DNA from: Rugalucina vietnamica
Lineage: Eukaryota > Mollusca > Bivalvia > Lucinida > Lucinidae
DNA length: 64,000 nt
Direction of reading: 5' to 3'
Assembly: GCA_964017185.1 (NCBI GenBank)
Contig: OZ024874.1
Span: 49,628,856-49,692,855, forward strand
Shown: in pieces, positions 4,001-61,202 of the stretch
Layout: each line of letters opens with the position of its first letter
Position numbering within the stretch: the stretch's first letter is position 1
The notes under the pieces: model-generated
Told to the model about the DNA's origin: nothing
Seen by the model: only the letters and a program-made list of their open reading frames with translations
Databases searched by the model: none
Made by a program: the position numbers and the translations under genes

Positions 4001-7000
4001 AATCAAGCATTTTTATGATATTTTCTGTACCTGGAATTTTTTAGCTATAGACATGCAAAAATTATTTTATTGAAATATCATTAAGAGGTTTTGGTACTAT
4101 TTTTAGTCATATTGGACAGAAGGAATTGCTTTTTGTGTATTAACTATTATTATGGGGAGTTACCGGCCTTCCTCAAAGACACAACGCTGTGCTGGTGGGG
4201 AACAAACCTCTGACCTCTCATCTAGAGTTCCATGTGCTAACCTCCTGTTTGACTGACTTTATACTATATTCAGAAATGCTGTCAAACAGTTTTTACTGCA
4301 AATCATTTTGTTATCATTTTAGCAATTTAAGTTAAAACACACCTTCTCTATGTCCAGCAGTAGCTGTCTTGATTTTCTCAGTGTTTTCCCAACATTAGTT
4401 TTAGTCTTAGCACTGGCTGCTGTCTCAGAGACACTCTTGGCAAGAAGATCTATGATCTGCCGAGGGTTGTGAACACTTGACGTCGTCAGTCGACCAAGGG
4501 AACCTTCAAAATGGGCTGAAACGGAAGATAAAAGTGATTTTAAAAACTAATTCACACGTTTAAAGATTCTATTTTATACTACATGCTTTATACCTGCTCT
4601 TAGCATCTTACTATCTTTCACAAGATATAAAATAAGTATTCTTCTTAGGTGTTGTCTACAGCAGAAAACTTTATGTTTGTTTGTTTGGGAAATACCCTGT
4701 GAAACCACAGAGCCAAGAAGGTGACAGTCAAAACATTGATACATAATGATGCAGGAATAATTTGATTGGTATTTTAATATCATTTTACTAGCATTGTTAG
4801 TGGGATTCCAACATGGAGCCACTTGTTCAAAACTTTGTTGCCTTAACATCATCCTTAAAACCTCTACATGCTAAGTAAATACAGATTACATAAGCAAAGG
4901 ATTCTCACATAATTTCAACAAATAATAGTGTATTTGTAATATTGCCATTTTAACGAATTGTTAACTAACGACATCATTAATTTTGAACAACTCGGCCCTA
5001 GGCAACAAAATTATACAGCCAGTCAGAAGTCAAATCCATTGATATGTCTGAGCTATCCAGTGGTATTGATGGTAAGATTCCAACAAGGCAATGTTGGCTG
5101 ATTTCATGTTAATGTCCAACTCTAACTGGTTCCGAGGTTATAAAACTTTTTTCATGCTCAGCTCAGCTGAGACTAAAATTTATCCTGCTCATAAATTTTA
5201 AAATGCCAACAATTGTTGGCATTTTAACAACTAGTAAATTTTACCCGTCTCGACGTAGCAGTAAGATGATTGCAAAAAATGAACCCCTCGAGCTAATATC
5301 CGAGGCCGCCCTCCACCTTCCCACCAAGTTTGGTGAAGATTGGCCCAAGGACCTGGGAGAAGTAGGGGAACAAACAGAAAAAAAAACAAATTTGACCTTT
5401 GACCTCGATGACCTTGACCTTTAAAAAAATGAACCCCTCAAGCTAATATCCGGGGCCGCCATCCACCTTCCCTCCAATTTTGGTGAAGATCGGCCCAAGG
5501 ACCTGGGAGGAACAGAAAAAACCCCATAAATTTGACCTTTGACCTTTGACCTCGATGACCTTTGACTCAATTGGACCCATAAATCTTAATCAGGGATCAA
5601 CCTGTATACACTCACCAAGTTTCATGCCAATTCGACCAAGGACTGCCGAGATACAGAAATTTGACCTTTGACCTCAATGACCTTGACCTTTAAAAATGAA
5701 CCCCTTGAGCCAATATCCGGGGCGGCCCTCAACCTTCCCACCAAGTTTGGTGAAGATCGGCCCAATGACCTGGGAGGAACAAACAGAAAAAAACAACATA
5801 AGTTTGACCTTTGACCTTGATGACCTTTGACCCTATTGGACCCATAAATCTTAATCAGGGATTAACCTGTAAACACTCACCAAGTTTCATGCAAATCGGA
5901 CCAAGGACTGCCGAGATACAGAAACTTGACCTTTGACCCCGATAACAGAAAAAAACATAAATTTGACCTTTGACCTCGATGACCATTGACCCAATTGGAC
6001 CCATAAATCTTAATCAGGGATCAACCTGTATACACTCACCAAGTTTCATGCAAATCGGACCAAGGATTGCCGAGATACAGAAATTTGACCTTTGACCTCG
6101 ATGACCTTGACCTTTAAAAAATGAACCCCTCGAGGTAATATCCGGGGCCGCCCTCCACCTTCCCACCAAGTTTGGTGAAGATCGGCCCAAGGACCTTGGA
6201 GAAGTAGAGGAACAAACAGAAAAAAAAACCCATAAATTTGACCTTTGACCTCGATGACCTTGACCTTTCAAAAAATGAACCCCTCAAGCTAATATCCGGG
6301 GTCGCCCTCCACCTTCCCTCCAAGTTTGGTGAAGATCGGCCCAAGGACCTGGGAGGAGTAGGGGAACAAACAAACAAACAAACAGACAAACGTTGCTCAA
6401 ATTATAGTATGATTATTATCAGGATAAATTGCAGGATAAGTTGATCTACACCTGAAATTAAAATCTATTTAGTCTAGTTCAGTAATTATAAGCACTCAAA
6501 ATTTTAAGCTCAGCTGAGACAGAGGCTTGGTACAGAGGCTTGTTGAGTTTTCTTGTGATGAGTTACATGAGAAACAGCAGTAAGTACCTGGTTTATATGA
6601 CTTATTCTCCACTTTGGCCAGGGCTGGTATCACAAGTTGCTGTTCGGTCTCTTCCTCTCCATCCTTCTTCTTCTCTTTGGCCTTCTTCTTCATACAGTAG
6701 GTCTGCCAAAACAATTACCAGGTATCTATTACCCTATTTATTCTAATTAGGGCACAGTGCACTTAAATTTTCAAAATAACAAAGTTGAGGTAACAACACA
6801 CTACAAACCAAAACTAGAGGACCATTGGTCCTGTAGCTCACCTGAGAGATTATCACATTGTAAGCTCATGAGATTTAAATTAATTGAGAATCGACCAATG
6901 AAAGTCTATGCATGGACACTACTGACCCCCGGGGCATGGCCAAATTTGACCCAGGGGCATGACTGGCACAATTTATAATGGGGACTACCAAACATTGCTA

Positions 7001-10000
7001 CATACAAAATATAGAAGCTCTGGGCCTTTTGGTTTCAGAGAAGAAGATTTTTTTAGTTTTTCCCATTGTAAGTCTATGGAGACTATCTACCCCCGGGGTG
7101 TGGCCAAATTTGACCCCAGGGGCATGGCTGGCACAATTTATGTAGAGGACCATTAGCCATTGCCACATACAAAATATCAAAGCTGTGTGCCCTGTGGTTT
7201 CAGAGAAGAAGAGTTTTGAATTTTTTTCCCATAGCAAGTCTATTGAGACTATCAACCTCTGGGGCCTGGCCAAATTTGACCCCAGGGGCATGAATGGCAC
7301 AATTTATGTGGAGGACCATTAGCCATTGCTACATACCAAATAACAAAGCTGTGGGCCAAGTGGTTTCAGAGAAGAAGATTTCTTTAGTTTTTCCTATTGT
7401 AGGTCTATGGAGACTATCGACCCCCGAGGCGTGGCCAATTTTGACCCCGGGGACATGATTGGCACAATTTATGTAGAGGACCATTAGCCATTGCCACATA
7501 CAAAATATCAAAGCTGTGGGCCCTGTGGTTTCAGAGAAGAAGATTTTTAAATTTTTTTCCCATAGTAAGTCTATGGAGACTATCAACCCCTGGGGCGTGG
7601 CCAAATTTAACCCCAGGGGCATGAATGGCACAATTTATGTAGAGGACCATTAGCCATTGCTACATACCAAATATCAACGCTGTGGGCCTAGTGGTTTCAG
7701 AGAAGAAGATTTTTTTAGTTTTTCCAATTGTAAGTCTATGGAAACTATCCACCCCCGGGGCGTGGCCAAATTTGACCCCAGGGGCATAGCTGGCACAATT
7801 TATGTAGAGGACCATTAGCCATTGCCACATACCAAATATATCAAAGCTGTGGGCCCTGTGGTTTCAGAGAAGAAGATTTTTAAATTTTTTTCCCATAGTA
7901 AGTCTATGGAGACTATCGACCCCCCGGTGCCTGGCCAAATTTGACCCCAGGGGCACGAATGGCACAATTTATGTAGAGGACCATTAGCCATTGCTACATA
8001 CCAAATATCAAAGCTGTGGGCCTAGTGGTTTCAGAGAAGAAGATTTTTTTACTTTTTCCCATTGTAAGTCTATGGGACCTATCTGTTGCCATGGAAACCA
8101 CAATTTAGATACAATCTGCTCCAAAACCTAATGCCATCAATCCCCCAACCCAATTATGGTTCACATTAAATTTGATCAAGATCGGCCTACTAGCTTCAGA
8201 AATATTCTTCTTTGAAATTGTGGACGGACGACGGACGAAGGACGACAGACGACGGACGGACGACGACGGATGCCTGCCTATCCTATAAGCTCACCTGTGA
8301 GCCTTCGGCTCAGGTGAGCTAACAACACATAAACTGCTGAAATAATCAGGTCAAACATATCAATGATAATGTCAATTAAGTGTTCCAATGTTGAACATAG
8401 TGTTTGATCATTAAAGGTAGTTTTTATGTGCTTAATACAGTATAATGTGTAAAACTGCTGTAATACACCAATATGCAAGTTGAGCAACATGCCCTTATGC
8501 ATGTTTTTTCGAAAACGACAAGGATGTGTGCTTATTGGAGCACGTGCACTAATTAGAATAAATACAATACTTTGATTCGTTCTTAAAGATTCTGGTCAAC
8601 AATATTTCAGTCATGTCAGAGCCAACACTTCTTGGTAAGCACTACATAAACTGGCCTGTATTTTGACAGAAGAATGACAGAGGCTTGAAATATCGGATTT
8701 AGGAAAAAGAAGAGTTGTACTGTGTAGCGAAAACAAAGGCGCTGATCAGCTGTGCAGTAGCTGCACAGCTGATCTGCACCTTTGTTATCGCATATGCGAA
8801 AATCGGATTTTCTCATGACATGGCTAGTATCATGACAGTAAAGGTGTCTTGCTTGAGGACAAAACATGGCAGAGGGAGGTACTCTGCTCTATAAAGTATT
8901 CACAGGACCAATGTGCTTATGATTATCAGGTGCTTATTTTATTTTTGAAAATACACATAGTGTAAGAGAGTTGCTTTATATTTTTTCCAAGTCCACTCAC
9001 TCCTGTTTAGAAGTGAATCATGACTATTAATACATTGCCATCCATTTAGATTAAAATGTATAAATGAAAATAAAGTGTGAATAATTTATTTATTTTTTTA
9101 ATTTTAGCTTCCACATGAGAAAACCAACAATTCGGTTTCTGACCAGGTCTGACACACACAGGCCTGTACAATCAAAGAAGCAGGCTAGAAGCTTGGAAAT
9201 TTGCATTAAAGAAGATAAGAGATTATTCCATCCTTGTAGCGAAAACAAAGGTGCTGATCAGCTTTGCAGTAACTGCATCTTTGTTTTCGCCTATACATTT
9301 TGTTGGTTTTCTTATTTTTCTCTTTGGAAACAAATGACCTCTCAATTTGAATTCTAACACACTAGGTCACCACGCTGACTCCCCTCGAGTTTACTAATGT
9401 TACACGTACAGTATAATAATAATCATGGAGGTATGGGTTGTCCGTTTGTAGCTGCATAAGTTGTATTTTCACAATCCAGTCCTTCTCTTTCTGCGTCATA
9501 ATGCCTTTAAAGTCATCCTCAGATTTACTGGGTCGTCTTTGGGAGGGGGTCAGCCCTTCACGCTCCTCACGCCGTATGTTGTAGGGGTAACGATGATACC
9601 TGGAAACAGTATTTTCAAGATCCTCTAATCAAGGTGTTTTTTAAGAATCATAAGAACATTGTGTTTGTTTCAGGTTACCTGACCATATCTAAGTTTTAGC
9701 CCTCGCACCCAAACTTTTTAGGGAGTTTAAGAGGATTTCCAAGAGATTTTCCCTGTCAGCGATTTGGTTTTCCTATCTCCTCCATGTAAAAAAGTTCATC
9801 AAAATAAAAGTGTTCCTACATACCGAACCTTTTTCAAATTTCATGTAACCGGAAACACACACATTACTTTTAGGCCATATTTCTACATGCATATTTCAGC
9901 TTTAATGAGAGTTCTTATTTTGCATATGCCTTATCTACAATCACTTTACTATTTAAATTCAAAATTTCAATGGTCATTGTGTGATATGACAATATTTGTC

Positions 10001-13000
10001 AATATTGCCTATTTTGTTTGCTTGATCTAATTCTTAACATCCCACACAATAATGTTTCAGTCATGCTGGGATGGAGCCAATGCTTCCTGGGTATTTAACC
10101 AGTAAATGGTTATCCAAGGAAACAGCCAGCCAGCTAAGAATCTCTCGATTCCAAGTGTGCACACTACTACTAGGTCAATGTTCTCCAGTCTGTGAGAATT
10201 ACCTGTGTTCTCTGTTATATTCATTCCTCTCTCTATTGTTGTTGTTGTTGTTGTTGGTGTTGTTCTCATTTCTAGCCATATTCCTGTCTCTGTTGTTATG
10301 GAAATTGGTGTGTTGCTGGGGAGACCTTCAATAATATTCATGTTTGAGTATAACAATTCAGGAAAGCCAACAATTTTTTAACTTCTCTAATACAACTAAA
10401 AGCGAATGTATTTATGTTTTGAATATAGGTTCTGTATTACTAGTCTGAAAATTGATTAGTGACTCTCAAGAACTGAATGCTACCCATATGACCAGAAACT
10501 CACTCGATTCTTTGTGTGTGCTGCAGGTAGCAGGGTGTACCTTTTCTAGACTATTGGACATTTGAAGGGAAATAAACTAGAAACCTTATGGTAATCTTTA
10601 TCTTTAAACTGTCTGATGATAATCATGGCCTTCCAAGAAGCCAGTCTACACAAACTTTTTTTTTTCTTTTTCATAAATGAATTCTCTAGTTTAACCTTGT
10701 ATATTTAATTCACACTTCACTGGAAGTGGTGTCCCTGAGCCAATTATAATCAAAGATGTGTCAAAATTATTTTGACACATTATTGACAACAAAGAAAGGA
10801 TTAAGGAAGTCCACCACGCAGTTATCACACTGTAACTAGAGCTGCACTTTTATTTACTCCAGCCTCAAACTTAAAAACTCTGTAACTTTCTTATTTTTTG
10901 TCCAATTTTTATGATCTTTTTACCAAAATAAAGGGCAGGGTGCAAACTTTAGGAAAAAGGGCATAACAGGGCGCTGAAGAAGGGCAACAGGGCGATGCGC
11001 CCTGCTAAATTGTTCTAGCTGAAGCACTGATCTGAGTAGCAAAAACAAAGGCGCTGATGTGCTGTGCAGTAACTGCACAGCTGATCTGCGGCTTTGTTTT
11101 TTTTTGCATGGGCAAAAATCCGGTTTTCTCATGATGCTGCTCATATAATACAGATCATGATCAGACCACTCAAGAAGTGTGTTCTCCATGCACACTTTAC
11201 TTGCAAGTCCTTCCAAAGATTTGCATTAACCCTTCTATGACGAGTGGATTCACCCAGTGTTATCACTTTGACTTTTAGAGGTTTCAGGTGCCATTTTATA
11301 ATTTTACTCCATTTTTTGAAGAAATTCCTCCCAGCAAACAGAATAGCCCCAGATGAGACACCGCATTCTGCGGCATCGCATCTGGGTCTATTCTGGTTGC
11401 CCCACAAAAAGGACGCTAGGCTTAAACGAGTTAAATTGTAATCACTACTCACTGAAATCTGTTATTTCTTTCATGGTGAGCATTTCTAGCATAGCTGGGG
11501 TCACTGAAAGCACCAGGTGGAGGCATTCTGAAACATAGAACAGTACCATAAAATCAGGAAAATATATCCTTGAAATGTGTACCCCATTTAATCCAACTTT
11601 TATACAGCAGAACTGGGGTATGCAGAGGTATACCTATTTTTCTTACTTTGTTTCAAAATATAGATTGTGGGTAGTCTTTAGAACCGCTTTGGCGAGGCAG
11701 TAGTAACATGTACCCAAAATCTATGTTATGAGCAAAAATATTAATAAGAGCTGTCGCAGGACAGCGTGCTCGACTGCTTCTGACCTTTGTCAAACATAAG
11801 GCCAAACCCGACCAGTAACCCAAAGCATTATGCTCATACATCTTTTTGCCTTGATGCAATAAGGCAAAATCACTGAACCATGAAAGTTAACTATAACTAT
11901 CTAAGATTTTAAGGTCTCACTCATATTGTGAAAGAAGTGTGTTCATATACCAACTGAGTGCCAAGACACAAGGCAAAATCACTGAACCGTGAAAAAAAGG
12001 TCTCACTGACCTATAAGTATTGCAGGGTCAAAGGTCTAGTGATACTTACTCATAATGTAAAAGAAAAATGATCATATACCCATTCAGTGTTGAGATATAA
12101 AGCAAAATCACTGAACCATGAAATTAGGTCATAGTGACCTATAAGTATGTTTGGGTTAAAGGTGTGGTCATACTCATTCATAATCAGAAAGAAGTATGAA
12201 AAAATACCAACTGAGTGTCGAGATATAAGGCAAAATCACTGAACCATGAAATTAGGTCACCGTGACCAAGGAATACTTTACGGTCAAAGGTCTTGTCATA
12301 CTCATACATATCGTGAAAGAAGTATGTTCATATACCAATTGAGTGCTGAGATATAAAGGAAAATCACTGAACCTTGAAATTAGGTCATACTGACCTAGGA
12401 CTACTTTAGGGTAAAAGGTCTTTGTCATACGCAAACATAGTATGAAAGAAGTTTGTTCATAAACCACTTGAGTGCCGAGATATAAGGCAAAGTCACTGAA
12501 CAGTGAAATTAGGTCACAAGACCTATAAGTATATTGGGGTCAAAGGTCTGGTCATACTCACTCATAATCTGAAAAAAGTATGAAAATATACTAATTGATT
12601 GTCAAGATATAAGGCAAAATCACTGAACCGTGAAATTAGGTCACAGTGACCTAGGACTACTTCAGGGTCAAAGGTCTTGTCATACGCAAACATACTTTGA
12701 AAGAAGTTTGTTCATAAACCATTTGAGTACCGAGATATAAGGCAAAAATCACTGAACCGTGAAATTAGGTCACAGTGGCCTATAAGTATATTGGGGTCAA
12801 AGGTCTGGTCATACTCACTCATAATCTGAAAAAAGTCTGAAAATATACTAATCGAGTGTCAAGATATAAGGCAAAATCACTGAACCGTGAAATTAGGTCA
12901 CAGTGACCTAGGACTACTTCAGGGTCAAAGGTCTTGTCATATGCAAACATACTTTGAAAGAAGTTTGTTCATAAACCATTTGAGTACCGAGATATAAGGC

Positions 13001-16000
13001 AAAATCAATGAACTGTGAAATTAGGTCACAGTGACCTATAAGTATATTGGGGTCAAAGGTCTGGTCATACTCACTCATAATCTGAAAAAAGTATGAAAAT
13101 ATACTAATTGAGAGTCAAGATATAGGCAAAATCACTGAACCGTGAAATTAGGTCACAGTGACCTATAAGTATATTGGGGTCAAAGGCCTGGTCTTACTAA
13201 CTCATAATCTGAAAGAAGTAAGAAAATATACTAATTGAGTGTCAAGATATAAGGCAAAATCACTGGACCATGGAAAGTAGGTCAACCGACCCTTACCGTC
13301 ATGGCACACAAGTCAGTGTCACAAAGTCAAAGGATGAATGACCAACCATCCTCCTAAGTTGTTTCTATTAAGAAATAAAAAGAAAAAAAATTTGGGGAGT
13401 TCTAGATTTTGACCTCTAGCCCCGCCCCCCTGACTCCGACCCAGAGGTTCGATGTCATGGAACCTAAAGTGTATGAAGTATGAATGCTTTATGATAAGTT
13501 GTTGTCAAGATATGCCTCCTTGTAAAAGTTACACAGCAGTACATCTATTTTTTAGTGTTCTAGTTTTTAACCTCCAGCCCCACCCCCCAGGCAAGGACCC
13601 AGGGGCCCGATGCCATGGAATGAAACTCAACCCTACAGGGTACCTATGGTCCGAGTATGAAAGCCCTCTGATAAAAAGTTTTCAAGATATAGACTTCTAG
13701 AATACTATATCACGGAAAAGCCATTATCATTAATGGTGTTCTAGATTTTAACCTCTAGCCCCACCCCCTGGCATGGACCCAGGGATCTGATGCCATGGAA
13801 TGAAAGCCGACCCTACAGGGTGTCAATGGCCCAAGTATCAATCATGCTTTCTGATGAGTGGTTGTCAAGATATGGACTTCTAGAAAACTTTAACACAAGA
13901 ATTGCCATTTTTGAAGTTGTTCTAGATTTTAACCTCCAGCCCCACCCCCTCCAGCCCCAGACCCAGGGGCCCGATGCCATGGAATGAAAGCTAACCCTAC
14001 AGGGTATCTATGGTCCAAGTATGAATGCTTTCTGATGAGTGGTTGTCAAGATATGGACTTCTAGAAAACTTTAAAGCAAGTGTGAAGCGCACGCACACGG
14101 GAACGCGCACGGGAACGGGAACGGGAACGTGGACGACCGGGGTGACTGCAATAGCTCTATGCACTTCGTGCAGTCGAGCTAAAAAAAGAAAATTTGATGA
14201 AATTTTCAATTTTTTACAGCTGAAACATTCACTGTATAATGCACAGGCATGGTTTCATAATGTTAAATTCTAATATCCCAGTCCATAAGGCTTCAGTCAT
14301 GTCAGGACAAAGGCAGAATTTCCAAGCACCAGTACGGTTGTACCAGTAATGATGGGGATATGTGATGTGTTCTAGGATACAATCTATCAAAAGTATCATT
14401 CGAACCAAGGACTTCTAAAGTTAGTCCTTCACTTTACCACTGGGTTATCATGATCCACAAAAACAAACTGGCTCACCTGTTATGCGGACTGTTGTAAGAG
14501 CCCTGCGGACTGCCATACACAGCGTGTGGACTGTCGAATGGACTTCCAGGGGTGCCAGGCACAACTCCTCTCATAGCACCTTGTGGTATCCCTATGGGCT
14601 GGGACAGACCACGCCCTGGGGTAGCTGCAAAGACAAACATTATTAATGCTTACATTATTCTTACACTAGGTTCAGACAATGGCTGTAATTTTCAACATAA
14701 AAGGTTCATACTGTACTGAATGTAATATTCAACCTTCACTAAAAATTCAAAATAAGAAATGTCCCCTAAATTTAAGCACAAATAACCATGGCTTATGATA
14801 TTAAACCTCAACCTATCTCCGACTGACGATTGAGCCGCCTCGTGGGAAAACCAACAATGTGGTTTCCGAACACGTCCGACGCAAACCGACCTGTACCGTC
14901 ACAGAAGTGAGCTAGAAGCTTGAAATTTCGGATTTAAGTAGAAAAGGAAATGTACTATCCGAGTAGCGAAAACAAAGGCACTGATCAGCTTCGCAGTTAC
15001 TGCGAAGCTGATCTGCGTCTTTGTTTTCGCCTATGCAGATTGTTGGTTTTCCCATGTGGCGGCTCGATTATTTGTGACAATTCCTTCCAGCATGCTGAGG
15101 AAGTCAAAAATGCACAGTACAAAATGGTCTACAAAGTTATAGTTGAACTTTGTTGTCTATTTGACATAACACTTACTTATTTTCTAACACCTTTGGAAGT
15201 GTTTCTCTTGTTAGAAACCTCAATGTCAGACAAAGATGTTTGCAGTTAAAGCTTTTACCCTCCTTCACACAATATAAATGCTTCTGTCAAACACATAAAC
15301 TGATCAGTTATTGTTTCTCTATCTTCATATGAGCCTACGTCATAAAAAAAAACCCGGAATTTCGCTACACGGATAGTACAATCCATCTTCTTCTTAAATC
15401 CGAAATTCCAAGCTTCTAGTAATCTTCTGAGGCTGCACAGGCCTGTTTGTGTAAGACCTGGTCGGAAACCCAAAGAGCGGTTTTCTGGCTCAAATTTAAG
15501 CTACTTTATTTACAGGGATCCAAAGTAACAATCAGAAAATAACAAATGAGCCGCTGCATGAGAAAACAAACAATTTGGGATTCTGACCAGGTCTGACACA
15601 AACCTGCCTGTACAGTCACAGAAGCAGGCTAGAAGCTTGAAATTTCAGATTGAAGAAAAAGGATTGTACTATCCGTGCAGGGAAAACAAAGGCGCTGATC
15701 TGCAGCTTTGTTTTTGCCTATGTAAATTTTTAGGTTTTCTCATGCAGTGGCTCAAAATAAAACGGTGAAAAGAACAAAATTCAAATGCTTCGACAAAAGC
15801 AACACAACCGCGAAAACACAATAAACAATTAATCATGCAATTATTATTCAAGCATGCAGAAACAAATTATTTAAAGCCATGCATCCTCAGTGTTTGAAAT
15901 AAAGACTAGATATAGAGTTCCTTTATAATAACAGAAATGATACATGCTTTGTAGTGGAAGTTGCAAATTTTTGAATATGAATGGCACAGCTTGGGCCTGG

Positions 16001-22000: not shown

Positions 22001-25000
22001 TCTTAACTGTATCAGTCATGTTTGGATAGATCCAGCACTTCCTGAAAATTAAGCATTATTTCAGAAGAGCAATACATGTATTATAGAGTAGATACTTAGT
22101 TGACAGCAAAGTTTTTGACAGTCAAAATACTTGTAGGTATATAGGTATTTAATACTACCATTGGTCTAGGTGGGGTGTTCCCCATGTTAGGAGGCATCAT
22201 GGCTAAATTCCCAGGAGAAGGATGCCCATTCTGTGCAAACTGCCCCATAGGCGGTGGGGTTCTGTTCCTTGGTTGGGTTGCCTCCCCTCTCAGTTGCCGT
22301 TCCAGCTCCTCTGCTGTAAGGACCTTGGGTTTGGAGGATTTCCTCGGCCGCTGTATCATGGAGTTTTCAATCTCGGCCAGGGTCTGAGCCTTCGGGAGGA
22401 CCATGGGTGGGGCCCGGGAGTGGGGGCCATGAATGGTTGGTACGGGCGAGTCCTGGAATAAAGAATACAAAAAGTTATAAATAGAAAGGTGGGTATTGGT
22501 AAACAACACAATAGGTATATTTTATATGGCCTAATTGCAATTGTCACCTTTTGAAACTTTACTAACTATCTTTCAGCAGAGTTACTTAACATACAGTATA
22601 ATAAATCAATTTTTAAAGAAATCATAAAGGGAAAAGTGGTACACTGAGGAAAATGTTAATCATCTGTCAGAATTTTTCAAATCAGTCGTTGTCAGCTTTC
22701 ATTGTCAACTGAACTTTTCAAGTCAAACCATCCATTCAAACAAGCCATATTGGCTAAGTTGGGTGGTTATATTTAAAGCACTTTTTAAATGTCATGACAT
22801 CCTAATTTTGGATTAAAGTGACAGTCCCATAAAATGGAGGGAACGTCCTGACATGACCACTGCTGATGACTGGGACGTAAAGCATCAAATCAAACAAAGT
22901 GTACCATTAAGTTCTGGCAGTCTATACATTTTTGGCTACTTACTCTAGAGGCAGATTTAGCAAAGTCAAAGAGTGTCTGTATATCACAGCCTTGTTTTGA
23001 TATCTGTGGCGAGTCAACAATAGGAGATCCCCAGATGTTTTTGCTCGTGGGGGATACCTGTTTCAAAGATAAATGCAAATTTGAACTGCGACATGAGAAA
23101 ACCAACAATGTGGTTTCAGAGCAGGTCCGACACAAACCAGCCTGTACAGTCAAATAAGATGGCTAGAGGTTTGATATTTTGGATTTAAGTAGAAGAGGAA
23201 TTGTACTACCTTTGAAGTGAAAGCAAAGGTGCTGATCAGCTTCGCAGTTACTGTGAAGCTGATCTGCACCTTTGTTTTCACATATGCAGATTGTTGGTTT
23301 TCTCATAAAGCGGCTCATTTATTCTATCAAAGGATCACAGCCTTGATTTGATATCTCTGGGAAGTCTATTAACAATGACGATTCTTCAGATGTTTTGGCT
23401 GGTGGGAGATGCCTGTTTCAAAGAAAAGATTTATATGAATTTGTTGTATCACATTCTTGTTAAGTCAACGCTCGGGACTGAGCCTCAAATATGTTGTTTT
23501 TTTGTTTTTTTTTCTTGTTACTCCCATCAATCAATTTCTGATTATTCTTGGGAGGTGTACATTGTACACTCCAGTGTGTTTGCAGGATAAGCCTACATTC
23601 ATGAGGATAGACCCTGTGTAGGGATCTTTAACCTGCACAGGGGATGACTGTCCCTGCACAGGGGGCCTCCAGTTAACGTCCCAATCCGAAGGATGGCACA
23701 CTGTATCATGTCATTCCTGCAAAGGACACAAAGGGAAGCGTGTTCGGACCAACAAATTTTCCCCGCCGCGGGGATCGAACCCGGGACCTCTAGCACAAGA
23801 AGCCAGTGCACTAACCACTTGGCTACCTCGCTTCCTCAAATATATTTATTGCTGGAAGATAAGACAGTTGTTCAAAATTAACGAACTATATGAATTATAT
23901 GTGTGGTTCCTAATTCATGCCCCCAAAAATTTAGGGTAGGTAGATAGGGTGTATTATTTAATTAAGTCAAAACCTTCAACACAGAAAATGGCCTTAAAAT
24001 TGGAAAATATTGTTATTTTCAGTTGTTTTTCTCTCCAAAGACCATTTTAATGCTTAGGGTAGGGTGAAAAAAATTAGGGTAGGTACTAGGTAGGGAAACC
24101 AGAACCACACATATAAATCATTTAGGCCTTAGTTTACGATTCATTAAAATTGAAAACATGAATATTACAAGTACACTGTTATTTTTTGTTGATAAAATGT
24201 GAGAATCCTTTGCAATGCAAAAGTATTATGCAATAGTATTGTTGAAGCATGGATGCCAAACAACAAACATCCATTATATCAAAACCAATGCCAAATAGTT
24301 TCTTGACCTACCTGCCCAAAACTAAAATACTGAGTACAAGTACTGAGTAGTTGAATGACAACTGAACATTTTCATTTTTATATTTAACCCTTTGTATGTT
24401 TCACAGACAAAACAGAATATGAGCCGCAACGCAAGAAAGCCGGTCTTTGGGGGTTTCTGACCAGGTCTGACACAAACCAGACTGTGCAGCTACAGAAGAT
24501 GCCTAGAAACTTGAAATTTGGGATTTAAGAAGAAGAGGAATCATACTATCTGTGTAGTGGAAACAAAGGCGCTGATCAGCTGTGCAGCTACTGCACAGCT
24601 GATCTGCACCTTTGTTTTCGCCTAGGCAAAAATCTGGTTTTCTCACGACGCGGCTCAAATGAAACAGAACTAAATAAGAGCTGTCGCAGGACAGCGTGCT
24701 CGACTGCTTCTGACCTTTGTCAAACATAAGGCCAAACCCGACCAGTAACCCAAAGCATTATGCTCATACATCTTTTTGCCTTGATGCAATAAGGCAAAAT
24801 CACTGAACCATGAAAGTTAACTATAACTACCTAAGATTTAAAGGTCTCACTCATATTGTGAAAGAAGTGTGTTCATATACCAACTGAGTGCCAAGACACA
24901 AGGCAAAATCACTGAACCGTGAAAAAAGGTCACACTGACCTATAAGTATTGCAGGGTCAAAGGTCTAGTGACACTTACTCATAATGTGAAAGAAAAATGA

Positions 25001-28000
25001 TCATATACCCATTCAGTGTTAATATATAAAGCAAAATCACTGAAACATGAAATTAGGTCATAGTGACCTATAAGTATGTTTGGGTTAAAGGTGTGGTCAT
25101 ACTCATTCATTATCAGAAAGAAGTATGAAAAAATACCAACTGAGTGTCGAGATATAAGGCAAAATCACTGAACCATGAAATTAGGTCACAGTGACCCAGG
25201 AATACTTTACGGTCAAAGGTCTCGTCATACTCATACATATCATGAAAGAAGCATGTTCATATACCAATTGAGTGTTGAGATATAAAGAAAAATCACTGAA
25301 CCGTGAAATTAGGTCATATTGACCTAGGACTACTTTAAGTTCAAAGGTCTTGTCATATGCAAAGATAGTGTGAAAGAAGTTTGTTCATAAACCACTTGAG
25401 TGCCGAGATATAAGGCAAAGTCACTGAACCGTGAAATTAGGTCAAAGTGACCTATATGTATATTGGGGTCAAAGGTCTGGTCATACTCACTCATAATCTG
25501 AAAAAAGTATGAAAATATACTAATTGAGTGTCAAGATATAAGGCAAAATCACTGAACCGTGAAATTAGGTCACAGTGACCTAGGACTACTTCAGGGTCAA
25601 AGGTCTTGTCATACGCAAACATACTTTGAAAGAAGTTTTTTCATAAACCATTTGAGTACCGAGATATAAGACAAAAAACACTGAACCGTGAAATTAGGTC
25701 ACAGTGACCTATAAGTATATTGGGGTCAAAGGTCTGGTCATACTCACTCATAATCTGAAAAAAGTATGAAAATATACTAATCGAGTGTCAAGATATAAGG
25801 CAAAATCACTGAACCATGAAATTAGGTCACAGTGACCTAGGACTACTTCAGGGTCAAAGGTCTTGTCATACGCAAACATACTTTGAAAGAAGTTTGTTCA
25901 TAAACCATTTGAGTACCGAGATATAAGGCAAAATCACTGAACCGTGAAATTAGGTCACAGTGACCTATAAGTATATTGCGGTCAAAGTTCTGGTCATACT
26001 CACTCATAATCTGAAAAAAGTATGAAAATATACTAATTGAGTATCAAGATATAAGGCAAAATCGCTGAACTGTGAAATTAGGTCACAGTGACCTATATGT
26101 ATATTGGGGTCAAAGGCCTGGTCGTACTTACTCATAATCTGAAAGAAGTAAGAAAATATACTAATTGAGTGTCAAGATATAAGGCAAAATCACTGAACCA
26201 TGGAAAGTAGGTCAACTGACCCTTACCGTCATGACACACAAGTCAGTGTCACAAAGTCAAAAGATGAATGACCAACCATCCTCCTAAGTTGTTTCTATTA
26301 AGAAATAAAAAGAAAAAAAATTTGGGGAGTTCTAGATTTTGACCTCTAGCCCCGCCCCCCTGACTCCGACCCAGAGGTCCGATGTCATGGAACCTAAAGT
26401 GTATGAAGTATGAATGCTTTATGATAAGTTGTTGTCAAGATATGCCTCCTTGTAAAAGTTATACAGCAGTACATCTATTTTTTAGTGTTCTAGTTTTTAA
26501 CCTCCAGCCCCAACCCCCTCCCCCCAGGCATGGACCCAGGGGCCCGATGCCATGGAATGAAACTCAACCCTACAGAGTACCTATGGTCCGAGTATGAAAG
26601 CCCTCTGTTAAAAAGTTTTCAAGATATAGACTTCTAGAACACTATATCACAGAAAAGCCATTATTATTAATGGTGTTATAGATTTTAACCTCAAGCCCCA
26701 CCCCCTGGCATGGACCCAGGGATCTGATGCCATGGAATGAAAGCCGACCCTACAGGGTGTAAATGGCCTAAGTATCAATGCTTTCTGATGAGTGGTTGTC
26801 AAGATATGGACTTCTAGAAAACTTTAACACAAGAATTGCCATTTTTGAAGGTGTTCTAGATTTTAACCTCCAGCCCCACCCCCTGGCCTGGACCCAGGGG
26901 CCCAATGCCATGGAATGAAAGCTAACCCTACAGGGTATCTATGGTCCAAGTATGAATGCTTTCTGATGAGTGGTTGTCAAGATATGGACTTCTAGAAAAC
27001 TTTAACGCAAGTGTGACAAACACGTGCACGGGAACGGGAAGGTGGACGACCGGGGTGACTGCAATAGCTCTATGCACTTCGCGCAGTCGAGCTAAAAAAC
27101 AAACATTAAACGTTAACAAGAAATCACAGGAATAATTCAGTCTAAAATTTTCCATAATGTCTGAAAGCATGAACACCATGAATTTAACAGTAACTTCTTT
27201 ACCTTGTACACAAAGCAATCTAGCTAGAAACACAAATAAATGGAGGTTTATAATAAATGAGCCACCCCACGGGAAAACCAACAACCTGAATATGCGAAAA
27301 CAAAGGCGCAGATCAGCTTCGCAGTTACTTCGCAGTAACTGCGAAGCTGATCAGCGCCTTTGTTTTCGCAACGCGGATAGTACCTCTACTTTCTAAATCC
27401 AAAATTACAAGCCTCTAGCCATCTTCTGTGACTGTACAGGCCGGTTTGTGTCGGACCTGTTCGGAAACCACATTGTTGGCTTTCCCACTAGGTGGCTCAA
27501 ATGTTTAAGATCTTACACTGGATAAGGAATGCAATACCAAAAAAAAAAAAGATCAAACATGGCTATTTTTGATCGATCACTGGTCCCCTTAAGCTTTCAT
27601 GCAAAATCATCACTAGATATTAAATATACAGAGGCTTATCAAAGTTATCAGGATCATAAATTTATGCTGAACAAATTGGCCATTTTGGGGGGAAAAAAAA
27701 ACTTCCTTTCTTAAGATCTTGAATCACAACTCACCAAGTACTCTGTATCCAGAAGGCTAGGTGGTGAAGACGGACCAAACAAGGCATCTAGATTCTGCTT
27801 GTTCTATAAATACAAAAGTATTGTTTTTAATACATGTACCATGTTATGACAATCCACCTCCTTAATTACATTTTTTACTTTCACTTTCATAATTGTCTGA
27901 GTTAACTTGCAGTTAATGAAATACATATATACCATCTTACCACGGGTATAGACCTGGACTGGAATGCATTCAGTATAACATTAAATGACCCGAATACAAG

Positions 28001-49144: not shown

Positions 49145-52100
49145 AGAGGACCAAGGGTCCTGTAGCTCACCTGAGAGGGTTCTAGTTGTTTGCTCCATCA
49201 ATTTTGTATGTGTCTGACAGGTTTCATGAAATTCCGGCCAAGTATTTTTTCAAGATATTAAGGAAACAAAGTGTTATCGGCCAAGCAGTTTCAGAGGAGA
49301 AGATCTTTAAAAAGTGTGTATAGACCACAGACCGGCCAAGGTCAAGAGATGACCTTGACCTAAACTGATTACATACCTTCATCTAATCCATTAGTTCTCT
49401 GCATCTACCACTTTTCAGGTCTCAGGCTGCAATAGTTATCAAAAAATCCATGGTTTTCACTTTTTCCAGTGTAAAAGCCTATGGTTCCAAAATTGACCTT
49501 GCCGTAAAATAGGTCAAGGTCACCCCAAGGTCATCATTTTCGCAAACTACAATGGTCTGGAGTCCCGGATGCTACATACCAAGTTTGGTGGAAACCGGCC
49601 CGCCGGTTCTGGAGAAGAAGATTTTTGAGTGGTTTTTACCATATATGGGCGTGGCGGCCATCTTGGTCATGTGACCAAGATCCCGCGAACAAACTTTTGT
49701 TCCCCCTATCCAAGGATGCTCCACATAAAATTTGGCTTTCATCGGCCATGCAGTTTCAGAGAAGAAGATGTTTGAAATTTTCCCATGTAACCTATGTTTC
49801 CAAAATTTACCTTGACGTAAAATAGGTCAAGATCATCCCAGGGTCATCATTTTCGCAAACTATGATGGGCTGGGGTCCCTGATGATACATACCAAGTTTC
49901 GTGGAAATCGACCCGCCCGGTTCTGGAGAAGAAGATTTTTGAGTTGTTTTTACCATATATGAGCGTGGCGGCCATCTTGGTCATGTGACCCGGTTTTCAC
50001 CAACAAACTTTCGTTCCACATATCCATGGAGGCTCCACATAAAATTTGGCTTTCATCGGCCAAGCGGTTTCAGAGGAGAAGATCTTTGAAAAGTGTGTAT
50101 AGACCACAGACCGGCCAAGGTCAAGAGATGACCTTGACCTAAATTGATTACATACCTTCATCTAATCCATTAGTTCTCTGCATCTACCACTTTTCAGGTC
50201 TCAGGCTGCAATAGTTATCAAAAATCCATGGTTTTCACTTTTTCCAGTGTAAAAGCCTATGTTTCCAAAATTGACCTTGCCGTAAAATAGGTTAAGGTCA
50301 CCCCAAGGTCATCATTTTCGCAAACTACAATGGGCTGGTGTCCCTGATGCTACATACCAAGTTTGGTGGAAATCGGCCCACAAGTTCTGGAGAAGAAGAT
50401 TTTTGAGTGGTTTTTACCAAATATGGGCGTGGCGGCCAGCTTGGTCATGTGATCAAGATCCCGCGAACAAACTTTCGTTCCCCCTACCCAAGGATGCTCC
50501 ATATAAAATTTGGCTTTCATCGGCCATGCAGTTTCAGAGAAGAAGATGTTTGAAATTTTCCAATGTAACCTATGTTTCCAAAATTTACCTTGACGTAAAA
50601 TAGGTCAAGGTCATCCCAGGGTCATCATTTTCGCAAACTATGACGGGCTGGGGTCTCTGATGATACATACCAAGTTTCGTGGAAATCGACCTGCCGGTTC
50701 TGGAGAAGAAGATTTTTTAGTTGTTTTTACCATATATGAGCGTGGCGGACATTTTGGTCATGCGACCCGGTTTTCACTAACAAACTTTCGTTCCACATAT
50801 CCATGGAGGCTCCACATAAAATTTGGCTTTCATCGGCCAAGCAGTTTCAGAGGAGAAGATCTTTAAAAAGTGTGTATAGACCACAGACCGGCCAAGGTCA
50901 AGAGATGACCTTGACCTAAATTGATTACATACCTTCATCTAATCCATTAGTTCTCTGCATCTACCACTTTTCAGGTCTCAGGCTGCAATAGTTATCAAAA
51001 AATCCATGGTTTTCACTTTTTCCAGTGTAAAAGCCTATGTTTCCAAAATTGACCTTGCCGTAAAATAGGTCAAGGTCACCCCAAGGTCATCATTTTCGCA
51101 AACTACAATGGCCTGGAGTCCCGGATGCTACATACCAAGTTTGGTGGAAACCGGCCCACCGGTTCTGGAGAAGAAGATTTTTGAGTGGTTTTTACCATAT
51201 ATGGGCGTGGCGGCCATCTTGGTCATGTGACGAAGATCCCGCGAACAAACTTTCGTTCCCCCTACCCAAGGATGCTCCACATAAAATTTGGCTTTCATCG
51301 GCCATGCAGTTTCAGAGAAGAAGATGTTTGAAATTTTCCCATGTAACCTATGTTTCCAAAATTTACCTTGACGTAAAATAGGTCAAGGTCATCCCAGGGT
51401 CATCATTTTCGCAAACTATGACAGGCTGGGGTCCCTGATGATACATACCAAGTTTCGTGGAAATCAACCCGCCGGTTCTGGAGAAGAAGATTTTTAGTTG
51501 TTTTTACCATATATGAGCGTGGCGGCCATCTTGGTCATGTGACCCGGTTTTCACGAACAAACTTTCGTTCCACATATCCATGGAGGCTCCACATAAAATT
51601 TGGCTTTCATCAGCCAAGCGGTTTCAGAGGAGAAGATCTTTGAAAAGTGTGTATAGTCCACAGACCGGCCAAGGTCAAGAGATGACCTTGACCTAAATTG
51701 ATTACATACCTTCATCTAATCCATTAGTTCTCTGCATCTACCACTTTTCAGGTCTCAGGCTGCAATAGTTATCAAAAAATCCATGGTTTTCACTTTTTCC
51801 AGTGTAAAAGCCTATGTTTCCAAAATTGACCTTGCCGTAAAATAGGTCAAGGTCACCCCAAGGTCATCATTTTCGCAAACTACAATGGGCTGGTGTCCCT
51901 GATGCTACATACCAAGTTTGGTGGAAATCGGCCCACAAGTTCTGGAAAAGAAGATTTTTGAGTGGTTTTTACCAAATATGGGCGTGGCGGCCATCTTGGT
52001 CATGTGACCAAGATCCCGCGAACAAACTTTCGTTCCCCCTACCCAAGGATGCTCCATATAAAATTTGGCTTTCATCGGCCATGCAGTTTCAGAGAAGAAG

Positions 52101-53775
52101 ATGTTTGAAAATTTCCAATGTAACCTATGTTTCCAAAATTTACCTTGACGTAAAATAGGTCAAGGTCATCCCAGGGTCATCATTTTCGCAAACTATGACG
52201 GGCTGGGGTCTCTGATGATACATACCAAGTTTCGTGGAAATCGACCCGCCGGTTCTGGAGAAGAAGATTTTTTAGTTGTTTTTACCATATATGAGCGTGG
52301 CGGCCATTTTGGTCATGTGACCCGGTTTTCACTAATAAACTTTCGTTCCACATATCCATGGAGGCTCCACATAAAATTTGGCTTTCATCGGCCAAGCAGT
52401 TTCAGAGGAGAAGATCTTTAAAAAGTGTGTATAGACCACAGACCGGCCAAGGTCAAGAGATGACCTTGACCTAAATTGATTACATACCTTCATCTAATCC
52501 ATTAGTTCTCTGCATCTACCACTTTTTAGGTCTCAGGCTGCAATAGTTATCAAAAAATCCATGGTTTTCACTTTTTCCAGTGTAAAAGCCTATGTTTCCA
52601 AAATTGACCTTGCCGTAAAATAGGTCAAGGTCACCCCAAGGTCATCATTTTCGCAAACTACAATGGTCTGGAGTCCCGGATGCTACATACCAAGTTTGGT
52701 GGAAACCGGCCCGCCGGTTCTGGAGAAGAAGATTTTTGAGTGGTTTTTACCATATATGGACGTGGCGGCCATCTTGGTTATGTGACCAAGATCCCACGAA
52801 CAAACTTTCGTTCCCCCTACCCAAGGATGCTCCACATAAAATTTGGCTTTCATCGGCCATGCAGTTTCAGAGAAGAAGATGTTTGAAATTTTCCCATGTA
52901 ACCTATGTTTCCAAAATTTACCTTGACGTAAAATAGGTCAAGGTCATCCCAGGGTCATCATTTTCGCAAACTATGACGGGCTGGGGTCCCTGATGATACA
53001 TACCAAGTTTCGTGGAAATCGACCCGCCGGTTCTGGAGAAGAAGATTTTTTAGTTGTTTTTACCATATATGAGCGTGGCGGCCATCTTGGTCATGTGACC
53101 CGGTTTTCACGAACAAACTTTCGTTCCACATATCCATGGAGGCTCCACATAAAATTTGGCTTTCATCAGCCAAGCGGTTTCAGAGGAGAAGATCTTTGAA
53201 AAGTGTGTATAGTCCACAGACCGGCCAAGGTCAAGAGATGACCTTGACCTAAATTGATTACATACCTTCATCTAATCCATTAGTTCTCTGCATCTACCAC
53301 TTTTCAGATCTCAGGCTGCAATAGTTATAAAAAAATCCATGGTTTTCACTTTTTCCAGGGTAAAAGCCTATGTTTCCAAAATTGACCTTGCCGTAAAATA
53401 GGTCAAGGTCACCCAAAGGTCATCATTTTCGCAAACTACGATGGGCTGGAGTCCCCGATGCTACATACCAAGTTTGGTGGAATTCGGCTCGCCGGTTCTG
53501 GAGAAGAAGATTTTTGAGTGGTTTTTACCATATATGGGCGTGGCGGCCATCTTGGTCATGTGACCAAGATCCTGCGAACAAACTTTCGTTCCCCCTACCC
53601 AAGGATGCTCCACATAAAATTTGGCTTTCATCGGCCAAGCGGTTTCAGAGAAGAAGATGTTTGAAATTGTGGACGACGGACGGACGACGGACGCCGGACG
53701 ACGGACGACGGACGGACGCCGGAACATTTGTATACTATAAGCTCACCTTGTGAGCCTTCGGCTCAGGTTAGCTAA
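49145..53775 (+). mobile_element. Pearl-like element D with 778-bp higher-order repeats
   Basis: The 5' tag is AGAGGACCAAGGGTCC then TGTAGCTCACCTGAG. About five and a half units of 778 bp follow (matching frames begin at 49625, 50403, 51181, 51958, 52736, 53514). They contain AATAGGTCAAGGTCA, ACCAAGTTTGGTGGAAA and GGTTCTGGAGAAGAAGATTT. A GGACGACGGACGG tract (53671-53720) and the 3' hairpin AAGCTCACCTTGTGAGCC / GGCTCAGG complete it. Same class as elements B and C. The repeated short ORFs are not genes. Confidence 0.8.
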
Positions 53776-60085: not shown

Positions 60086-60182
60086 ATTTGTAACACAAAA
60101 TGGTCAAAGGTAAAAGAAAAAAATCTGAAACCTCTAGAAATCTGATATCGTACACCTGGAGACTGTTGCTCTTGTTATTTTC

Positions 60183-61056
60183 TATGGTGTACTCGAAGGG
60201 TCAAAATGACCGAAGTGGTTAACCGATCGGTTAACCGATCGGTCCATGCCTATTTTGAAATAGGCATGCACCCGCAAATATAGGGGTGCACCCGCATATT
60301 TAGAGGTTCACCCCTATTTTCAGATACGGGTTAACCTGCATTTTAGGGGTTAACCCGCAATTTAGCGGTGCATGCCTATTTTAGAGGTGCATGCCTATTT
60401 TAGAGGTTAACCTCTAAAAATGCAGGTGCACCCCTATTTTAGGAGTGCATGCCTATTTTAGCGGTTCACCTCCATTTTAGAGGTTAACCCCTAAAAATAC
60501 GGGTGCAAGCCTAAAATAGGCATGCACCGCTATTTAGGGGTTAACCTCCATTTTACGGGTGCACCCGCATATTTGCAGGTGCATGTCTAAATATAGGGGT
60601 TAACCCGCAATTTAAAAATAGGGGTTCACCCCTATTTTTAAGGGTCCATGCCTAAATAGAGGTGAACCCCTAAATAGGGGTTAACCTGCAAAAATAGAGG
60701 TTAACCCCTATTTTAAAATTGCGGGTGAACCCCTATATTTAGGCTTTAACCTGCAAATATGCGGGTGCACCCCTAAATAGAGGTTAACCCCTAAATAGCG
60801 GTGCATGCCTATTTTAGGGGTGCACCCGTATTTTTAGAGGTGCACCCGTAAAGTAGAGGTTAACCCCTAAAATAGGCATGCACCCCTATAATAGGCATGT
60901 ACCTGCATTTTAGGGGTTAACCTCTATCTTAAAATAGGGGTGAACCTCTAAATATGCGGGTGCACCCCTATATTTGCGGGTGCATGTCTATTTTGAAATA
61001 AGCATGGACCGATCGGTTAACCACTTCGGTCATTTTGACCCTTCCAGTACACCATA
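60183..61056. mobile_element. 874-bp inverted-repeat element built of mixed short palindromes
   Basis: Terminal inverted repeats of about 45-60 bp begin TATGGTGTACTCGAAGGGTC / complement TATGGTGTACTGGAAGGGTC. They continue through AAAATGACCGAAGTGGTTAA and CCGATCGGT. The 6-bp ATTTTC flanks both ends (60177-60182 and 61057-61062). The interior (60240-61005) is about 39 units of about 19 bp. Each is a GG..CC palindrome with core GTTAAC, GTGCAC, GTTCAC, GTGAAC or GCATGC, joined by AT spacers such as CTATTTTAG. No open reading frame. Confidence 0.85.
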
Positions 61057-61202
61057 ATTTTCACAGTTTACTGATAATGATGATAAAAGCTGAAAGCTAC
61101 AAGATATTTTCTGAGATTTATTGCCCAATTGTGCCAGCTCCATTGGAGCTATATTTTGGCGATGGATACAGGAGTGTATACGTTTAACTGATTAAAACTT
61201 AA

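What the first reader, a model, noticed from the sequence alone, without database searches (positions are those of the whole stretch)
60183..61056. Mobile element whose interior is a combinatorial array of palindromic half-sites
Seen: long terminal inverted repeats, a 6-bp ATTTTC duplication at both borders, and an interior of about 39 units of about 19 bp. Each unit joins one left half-site (GGTT, GGTG or GGCA) to one right half-site (AACC, CACC or TGCC). Cores are therefore GTTAAC, GTGCAC, GTTCAC, GTGAAC or GCATGC, and order varies along the element with no simple higher-order period. AT spacers also switch among a few forms. Ordinary satellites or MITEs do not look like this; it resembles a modular alphabet. 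Inference: it may serve as a dense transposase or protein-binding array, or arise from repeated hairpin-templated copying that mixes arms.
Basis: partly seen in the sequence, partly recalled or inferred. Interest (0 to 1): 0.9.

Follow-up and report, generated by a model that had tools for sequence, protein, structure and literature searches.

The report
Foldback transposon built from half-site array
This is one copy of a repeated, protein-less jumping DNA that folds end to end into a hairpin and consists almost wholly of mirrored rows of short palindrome halves, probably docking sites for the enzyme that moves it; copies show its two halves swapping segments.

Summary
Window 60183-61056 is one copy of a dispersed mobile element with an exact 6-bp target duplication (ATTTTC), TATGG...CCATA ends, and about 40 dyad units on a 19-20 bp spacing. 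Of 40 scored genome places, 29 (this copy included) match over 800 bp or more at 90% identity or more. Unit order is conserved among young copies, so it is neither an artefact nor random decay.

It is a foldback-type non-autonomous DNA transposon. Its 6-bp duplications and TA..TA ends match published IS3EU/GingerRoot traits, but no transposase-bearing partner was found, so membership is unproven.

Some copies show how half-sites get mixed: inter-arm exchange tracts, a 95-bp right-arm block pasted into a left end at GGTTAACC, and deletions at unit homologies (11 of 28). Half-site changes between lineages mostly stay inside the GGTT/GGTG/GGCA alphabet (7 of 10); private changes do not (6 of 43). 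I favour a multimerised transposase-docking array, as in Galileo, shuffled by arm-to-arm copying. The docking role is inferred.

The parts
60177..60182 (.). left copy of target site duplication ATTTTC
61057..61062 (.). right copy of target site duplication ATTTTC
60183..61056 (.). whole element, 874 bp; no open frame of 60 aa lies within it
60183..60231 (+). left outer terminal inverted repeat, 49 bp; one mismatch to the right one
   Evidence: shorter patterns from it counted genome-wide
61008..61056 (-). right outer terminal inverted repeat, 49 bp
60199..60211 (.). inverted repeat GGTCA-AAA-TGACC inside the TIR (mirrored at the right end)
   Evidence: seen
60183..60664 (+). left arm of the imperfect whole-element hairpin
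60665..61056 (-). right arm; 330 of 368 paired positions complementary to the left arm in the majority of young copies
60242..61009 (.). array of dyad units made mostly of half-sites GGTT, GGTG, GGCA in alternating orientation
60325..60400 (+). about four units present in the left arm only (unmatched in the self-reverse-complement alignment)
60462..60490 (+). stretch of the left arm that carries right-arm states in copies L073 and L028 (inter-arm exchange)
60828..60922 (+). block of the right arm found pasted into the left TIR, joined at GGTTAACC, in copy L024; the same 70-letter insertion is aligned there in L023, L030, L031, L037, L044

Best explanation
It is a non-autonomous cut-and-paste DNA transposon of foldback architecture. 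Shown: 6-bp target duplications, TA..TA ends, many dispersed copies, two arms that mirror each other, arms made of about 76 half-sites, and, in some copies, exchange of segments between arms and between units. Inferred: a DDE transposase supplied in trans, most likely of the IS3EU/GingerRoot kind, cuts at the TATGG ends and inserts at a 6-bp stagger. The half-sites, of which the first (GGTTAACC) lies inside the TIR, would be multimerised docking sites for that transposase, or a partner protein, binding as dimers. This would make up for weak single-site recognition, as proposed for Galileo. Unit diversity arises because the arms and units are similar enough to copy into one another (inter-arm exchange, recombination at GGTTAACC-like cores), while lineages that keep transposing keep half-sites within the recognised alphabet.
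For: Copies: 40 of 384 candidate places were scored; 29 of these 40 span 800 bp or more at 90% identity or more, the window's own copy included. TIR pattern (33 places, up to 3 mismatches) at 328 sites, 0 for the reversed control. TSD: as coded 21 of 31 copies with both ends have an exact 6-bp duplication; L070 and L072 are exact once an end that I misplaced by one base is corrected, so 23 of 31; counting six copies with shared flanks as one insertion, 20 of 26. Mirror arms. Arm exchange: L073 and L028, nine consecutive diagnostic sites, five of which (60475, 60481, 60485, 60486, 60490) cannot be ancestral shared states; L068, four sites, three of them asymmetric in old and young copies; L071, five sites, two of them informative in that sense. 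Block transfer of 95 bp joined at GGTTAACC. Of 28 deletions of 8 bp or more, 11 (12, 19, 20, 55, 58 and 356 bp) have 9-22 bp of homology at the junction. Alphabet: half-site changes between old and young lineages 7 of 10 stay in the alphabet, against 6 of 43 distinct private events in young copies (Fisher one-sided p = 0.0009). Precedent: binding sites of the THAP domain repeated in the long TIRs of Galileo (PMC3688188, abstract and sections 12, 13); IS3EU with TA..TA ends and usually 6-bp TSDs, GingerRoot 6 bp and mostly TA..TA (PMC10045372, passages).
Against: No transposase-bearing partner was found. Four ends whose sequence leaves the array early were seen (L057, L074, L081, L087); of these L057, L081 (as L090) and L087 (as L091) were read for 6-9 kb and show no opposite TIR, and the longest + frame of each gave no Pfam family at E 0.01; L074 was read for 1.1 kb only. 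Of the 75 IS3-family profile hits scored (of 2590 candidates) none lies within 20 kb of a listed TIR site, compared by eye with lists that are capped; many sit in frames over 1000 aa, as in retroelement polyproteins. Half-site positions are not clearly more conserved than the rest: young copies 69/6328 against 125/8611 (two-sided p = 0.057), arm against arm 17/143 against 21/191. Seventeen of 28 deletions have only 0-5 bp of junction homology. The alphabet test rests on ten changes inferred from three old copies, and word swapping by conversion could produce the same pattern. No binding was measured.
Confidence: 0.55

Rival explanations
1. Mutational by-product: the same foldback transposon, but the array has no binding role. 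Short palindromes and inverted arms are self-templating, so slippage, template switching and arm-to-arm conversion grew and homogenised an array that merely rides between two functional 49-bp ends.
For: Arm exchange, block copying and unit deletions at homologies are seen directly. Half-site positions are not clearly more conserved than the rest. Chimeric elements with only about six units on one end are numerous, although they appear to ride in a larger repeat.
Against: Lineage changes of half-sites stay in the alphabet (7 of 10 against 6 of 43), though conversion between units could also do that. Outer modules are not driven to perfect palindromes within a unit, which local hairpin correction would predict.
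Confidence: 0.3
2. Host-factor array: half-sites bind a host dimeric protein (for example a nuclear-receptor-like or HNF1-like factor), giving the element a chromatin or enhancer role.
For: Dyad spacing near two helical turns; GGTCA-AAA-TGACC inside the TIR resembles a nuclear receptor inverted repeat (recalled, from no call).
Against: No test of expression or binding; the GGTTAACC motif also lies inside the TIR, where transposase recognition is the simpler reading.
Confidence: 0.1
3. Satellite DNA or an assembly artefact that looks like a mobile element.
For: Tandem unit structure.
Against: Copies with their own 6-bp duplications at unrelated flanks on many contigs, conserved order, 0.7-3.1% divergence of the 20 young copies from their majority.
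Confidence: 0.02

Closest known systems
Galileo (Drosophila, P superfamily, foldback-like)
   Same: Long terminal inverted repeats with internal repeats; a binding site of the transposase's THAP domain near the end recurs deeper in the arm (PMC3688188, abstract and sections 12, 13).
   Different: There the repeats are long direct repeats and three binding sites were tested; here the whole arm is dyads of about 19 bp. No transposase is known here.
Tetris and other foldback elements (Drosophila)
   Same: Non-autonomous, modular inverted arms holding tandem repeats; no autonomous partner found (PMC4079207, abstract and sections 17, 19).
   Different: Tetris repeats are about 220 bp and its TSD is 8-10 bp; here units are dyads of about 19 bp assembled from a few half-sites, TSD 6 bp.
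IS3EU / GingerRoot DNA transposons
   Same: TA..TA termini and 6-bp TSDs (PMC10045372, passages).
   Different: Those groups are placed by their transposase, which was not found for this family.
Tandem-repeat MITEs and Helentrons discussed for bivalves
   Same: Short elements carrying tandem repeats are discussed for oyster and, in a cited title, for the clam Donax (PMC8268682, passages only; the Donax paper is not held).
   Different: Compared by description only; the host of the window was not identified, and the passages seen describe no half-site array.

Membership tests
Non-autonomous TIR DNA transposon (MITE) | terminal inverted repeats, fixed-length TSD, many dispersed copies, no coding capacity | tested here: met
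   no stop-to-stop frame of 60 aa lies within the element, two only overlap its edges
Foldback elements | long inverted arms containing short tandem repeats, whole element able to fold back | tested here: met
   (folding predicted, not measured)
IS3EU / GingerRoot | TA..TA termini | tested here: met
   TATGG...CCATA ends; exceptions L015 (TGTGG), L039 (decayed), L044 (TATGA); criterion from PMC10045372
IS3EU / GingerRoot | TSD usually 6 bp | tested here: met
   exact in 21 of 31 as coded, 23 of 31 after two end corrections
IS3EU / GingerRoot | transposase of the IS3/IS481-like DDE group in an autonomous member with the same ends | tested here: inconclusive
   none found among elements read; IS3 profile hits not near listed TIR sites; most TIR sites were not read through
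Mutator-type foldback elements | TSD of 8-10 bp as used for Tetris (PMC4079207) | tested here: inconclusive
   6 bp here; but PMC10045372 gives 4-10 bp for IS256/MuDR, so length alone does not exclude it
Galileo / P superfamily | THAP-domain transposase | not tested
   no transposase found to test
Helitron/Helentron | no target duplication (recalled) | tested here: not met
   6-bp duplications

The most novel reading that the evidence does not exclude
A transposon family in which the cis-acting recognition region has taken over the whole element: some 76 half-sites written in a three-word alphabet, in which lineages change by swapping whole words and by copying segments between arms. The number and kind of half-sites per arm would set how well a copy competes for transposase, so the array evolves as a combinatorial recognition code.
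Probability: 0.25. Interest if true: 0.7.

Novelty: new variant of a known kind. Interest (0 to 1): 0.45.

Why it matters
Foldback transposons have long repetitive arms whose use is unsettled: PMC3688188 (section 13) calls the functionality of Galileo's long repeats uncertain and says that binding by the tandem repeats of Foldback and Phantom elements is untested. Here is a young, multi-copy family with very short units, many near-identical copies, some diverged older ones and visible exchange tracts. It should allow selection on binding half-sites to be told from self-templated copying, and it offers compact substrates for a binding assay.

Tried and rejected
Autonomous partner: the four array-type TIR pairs more than 1.2 kb apart that I saw in the capped listings and fetched proved to be array elements with an unrelated insertion: L066 a non-LTR retroelement by the look of its frames, L068 a 165-bp-repeat element also present at window 6820-8320, L072 and L073 other repeats. 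L027 (1.9 kb between its outer ends) holds a second piece of array and an insertion. Not read: longer chimeric (L048-type) pairs such as those near C2:53.59 Mb, C3:30.58 Mb, C4:59.23 Mb and C6:36.11 Mb, and a 19-kb pair near C12:22.04 Mb of which only 1.1 kb was read (L089). L057, L090 and L091 have one end only, no opposite TIR, and no Pfam match for the longest + frame of each (the 329-aa frame of L091 looked reverse-transcriptase-like to me, unsupported). L048-type elements (166 right ends at up to 3 mismatches) looked like deletion derivatives of an autonomous element, but their interior recurs elsewhere in the larger repeat that carries them, so I read them as chimeras. An IS3-family profile search gave no hit near a listed TIR.

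Within-unit palindrome correction: rejected as the main driver, because outer modules do not match within units. Stronger conservation of cores than of spacers: not shown. Old copies as evidence of arm exchange at every site where they show the other arm's state: rejected, because at 16 of 38 such sites the old majority is symmetric. Other old copies (for example L040, L039) also show runs of other-arm states; these mix with ancestral states and were not counted. Relatives outside this genome: an exact 27-place TIR pattern gave 0 in viral contigs and 0 in prokaryote contigs, collections where a relative was not expected. Literature: searches listed no paper that I recognised as describing this element. 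I saw titles and abstract starts, and only the listed part where a list was cut (25 of 35; 15 of 16; 10 of 25, with primer-like hits for one short term). Only open PMC papers are held; Repbase was not available.

Rows set aside: the majority sequence uses 20 of the 26 aligned copies; L016a, L035, L036, L039, L044 and L070 were left out as old, truncated or heavily deleted. Arm states were profiled for those 26 and for 40 segments (L036, L039 and L070 are in both, and L038 and L045 are parts of L066 and L073). Deletion junctions were read for 30 segments; copies that share a deletion (L030/L031; L073/L083; the 12-bp one of L027, L072, L036) were counted as separate rows.

Full report
What is there. 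Window 60183-61056 is bounded by ATTTTC on both sides, begins TATGGTGTACT and ends AGTACACCATA. Between 49-bp outer inverted repeats lie about 40 dyad units; with those inside the TIRs I count 42 cores. Their half-sites are GGTT, GGTG or GGCA in 69 of 76 cases in the majority sequence of 20 young copies. The first of these cores, GGTTAACC, is part of the TIR itself. No stop-to-stop frame of 60 aa lies within the element.

Chance. A dinucleotide shuffle is a weak null for a repetitive element, although the element beats it by 39 standard deviations (20 shuffles). The sharper null keeps the units and shuffles their order. The array aligned to its own reverse complement scores 405; 300 shuffles give 223 +/- 19 with a maximum of 296. 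The DNA fold is -378 kcal/mol against -302 +/- 9 and a best of -326 in 40 shuffles. So the second half is a mirror image of the first, with 330 of 368 paired positions complementary in the young majority, and with about four units (60325-60400) in the left arm only. Within units, the outer modules of the two half-sites are independent, while the inner halves are associated.

Copies. The search of the window's own genome (1.09 Gb, 47 contigs, unnamed) scored 40 of 384 candidate places; 29 span 800 bp or more of the query at 90% identity or more, the window's own copy included, and two more do so at 86-87%. A TIR pattern occurs at 328 sites with up to 3 mismatches and at none in the reversed control; an inner-TIR pattern at 107 with up to 1 mismatch. 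Of 26 copies aligned, the 20 young ones lie 0.7-3.1% from their majority, with unit order conserved apart from deletions and the block insertion described below. An exact 6-bp duplication flanks 21 of 31 copies as coded and 23 of 31 after two end positions that I had misplaced by one base are corrected. L023, L024, L030, L031, L037 and L044 share flanks and appear to be one insertion spread by a larger repeat, so the count by event is 20 of 26. Two copies in unrelated flanks share ATTTTC (L047, which is the window copy, and L066). Not exact: L014, L015, L016a, L019, L039 and L073, plus L031 and L044 inside the shared group.

How the units get mixed. Where the two arms differ in the young majority there are 38 diagnostic sites. 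At 15 of them the majority of three old copies (L036, L039, L070) is asymmetric in the same way, at 16 it is symmetric so that one young arm changed, and 7 are unclear. A tract in which a copy carries the other arm's state at sites that cannot be ancestral is read as an exchange. L073 and L028 share nine consecutive right-arm states in the left arm (60462-60490), five of them informative in this sense. L068 has four (60480-60486), three informative. L071 has five left-arm states in its right arm, two informative. They run in both directions; the L071 case is the weakest, and L073 and L028 may descend from one event. None of the 20 young full copies shows such a tract. A separate event pasted a 95-bp right-arm block (60828-60922) into the left TIR, the join falling at GGTTAACC; the six copies with shared flanks all carry it by alignment. 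Of 28 deletions of 8 bp or more in 30 segments, 11 have 9-22 bp of homology at the junction, for example 19 bp in L073 and L083, 58 bp in L037 and 356 bp in L016a; 17 have 0-5 bp. These data show copying between arms and units; they do not show whether it happens within one folded strand or between two copies.

Do the half-sites matter? In private changes of young copies, 6 of 43 distinct altered half-sites are still in the alphabet, not significantly above the one in twelve that I take as the random expectation (binomial p = 0.14). Between old and young lineages 7 of 10 are (Fisher one-sided p = 0.0009), and between arms 6 of 13 (p = 0.022). Each of the three old copies on its own shows 7 in-alphabet changes of 18, 27 and 19, which fits shared lineage changes plus later decay. 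This agrees with either selection for recognised half-sites in the transposing lineages or word swapping by conversion. Against selection, half-site positions do not differ clearly in rate from other positions (69/6328 against 125/8611, p = 0.057; arm against arm 17/143 against 21/191). The samples are small and the changes are not fully independent.

What moves it. TA..TA ends with 6-bp duplications are published traits of IS3EU and, mostly, of GingerRoot (PMC10045372, passages). I did not find a transposase. The longer array-type elements that I read were array copies with unrelated insertions; three ends that leave the array early led to no opposite end in 6-9 kb and to no Pfam match for their longest + frames. 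Membership is therefore open; the architecture is that of foldback elements.

Comparison. [quoted passage not shown] Tetris is a foldback element without a known partner whose arms hold 220-bp repeats (PMC4079207, abstract and sections 17, 19). The present family shares the plan. It differs in that the repeated unit is a dyad of about 19 bp made of two words from a short alphabet, and in that the array fills the element. I recognised no description of it in the search listings named under Tried and rejected.

Verdict. A real, multi-copy foldback transposon family, a new variant of a known kind. Shown: anatomy, marks of mobility, mirror arms, and arm and unit exchange in some copies. Inferred: transposase docking by the half-sites and the IS3EU/GingerRoot link.

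Noticed in passing
L048 498-952, and 166 similar right ends genome-wide: A chimeric 455-bp element with this family's end and about six units, an interior that recurs elsewhere in the larger repeat carrying it, and a short right TIR; it seems to have been multiplied inside that larger repeat.
   Followed up: partly
window 11743-14186 and 24673-27099: Two copies, 95.7% identical, of a 2.4-kb unit holding a 128-bp tandem array, about 13 kb apart.
   Followed up: no
window 6820-8320: A 165-bp-repeat element (Helitron-like by look, recalled) closely related (95.5% over 1.26 kb, 91.6% over 1.41 kb) to the insertion inside copy L068.
   Followed up: partly
window 49276-53668: A long tandem array with about 313-bp units and a higher-order period near 778 bp, 96-98% identical between blocks.
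   Followed up: no
window 60199-60211: GGTCA-AAA-TGACC in the TIR has the form of a nuclear receptor inverted repeat with 3-bp spacer (resemblance recalled, not tested).
   Followed up: no
L032: A mosaic copy: old-lineage states in the outer left arm, young states further in and in the right arm.
   Followed up: no
L073 from 397 to about 1887; L069 at 991: Another repeat, beginning AGATAGCACGTATAC, is inserted in the array in L073 and also occurs in L069 some 0.9 kb beyond its TIR.
   Followed up: no
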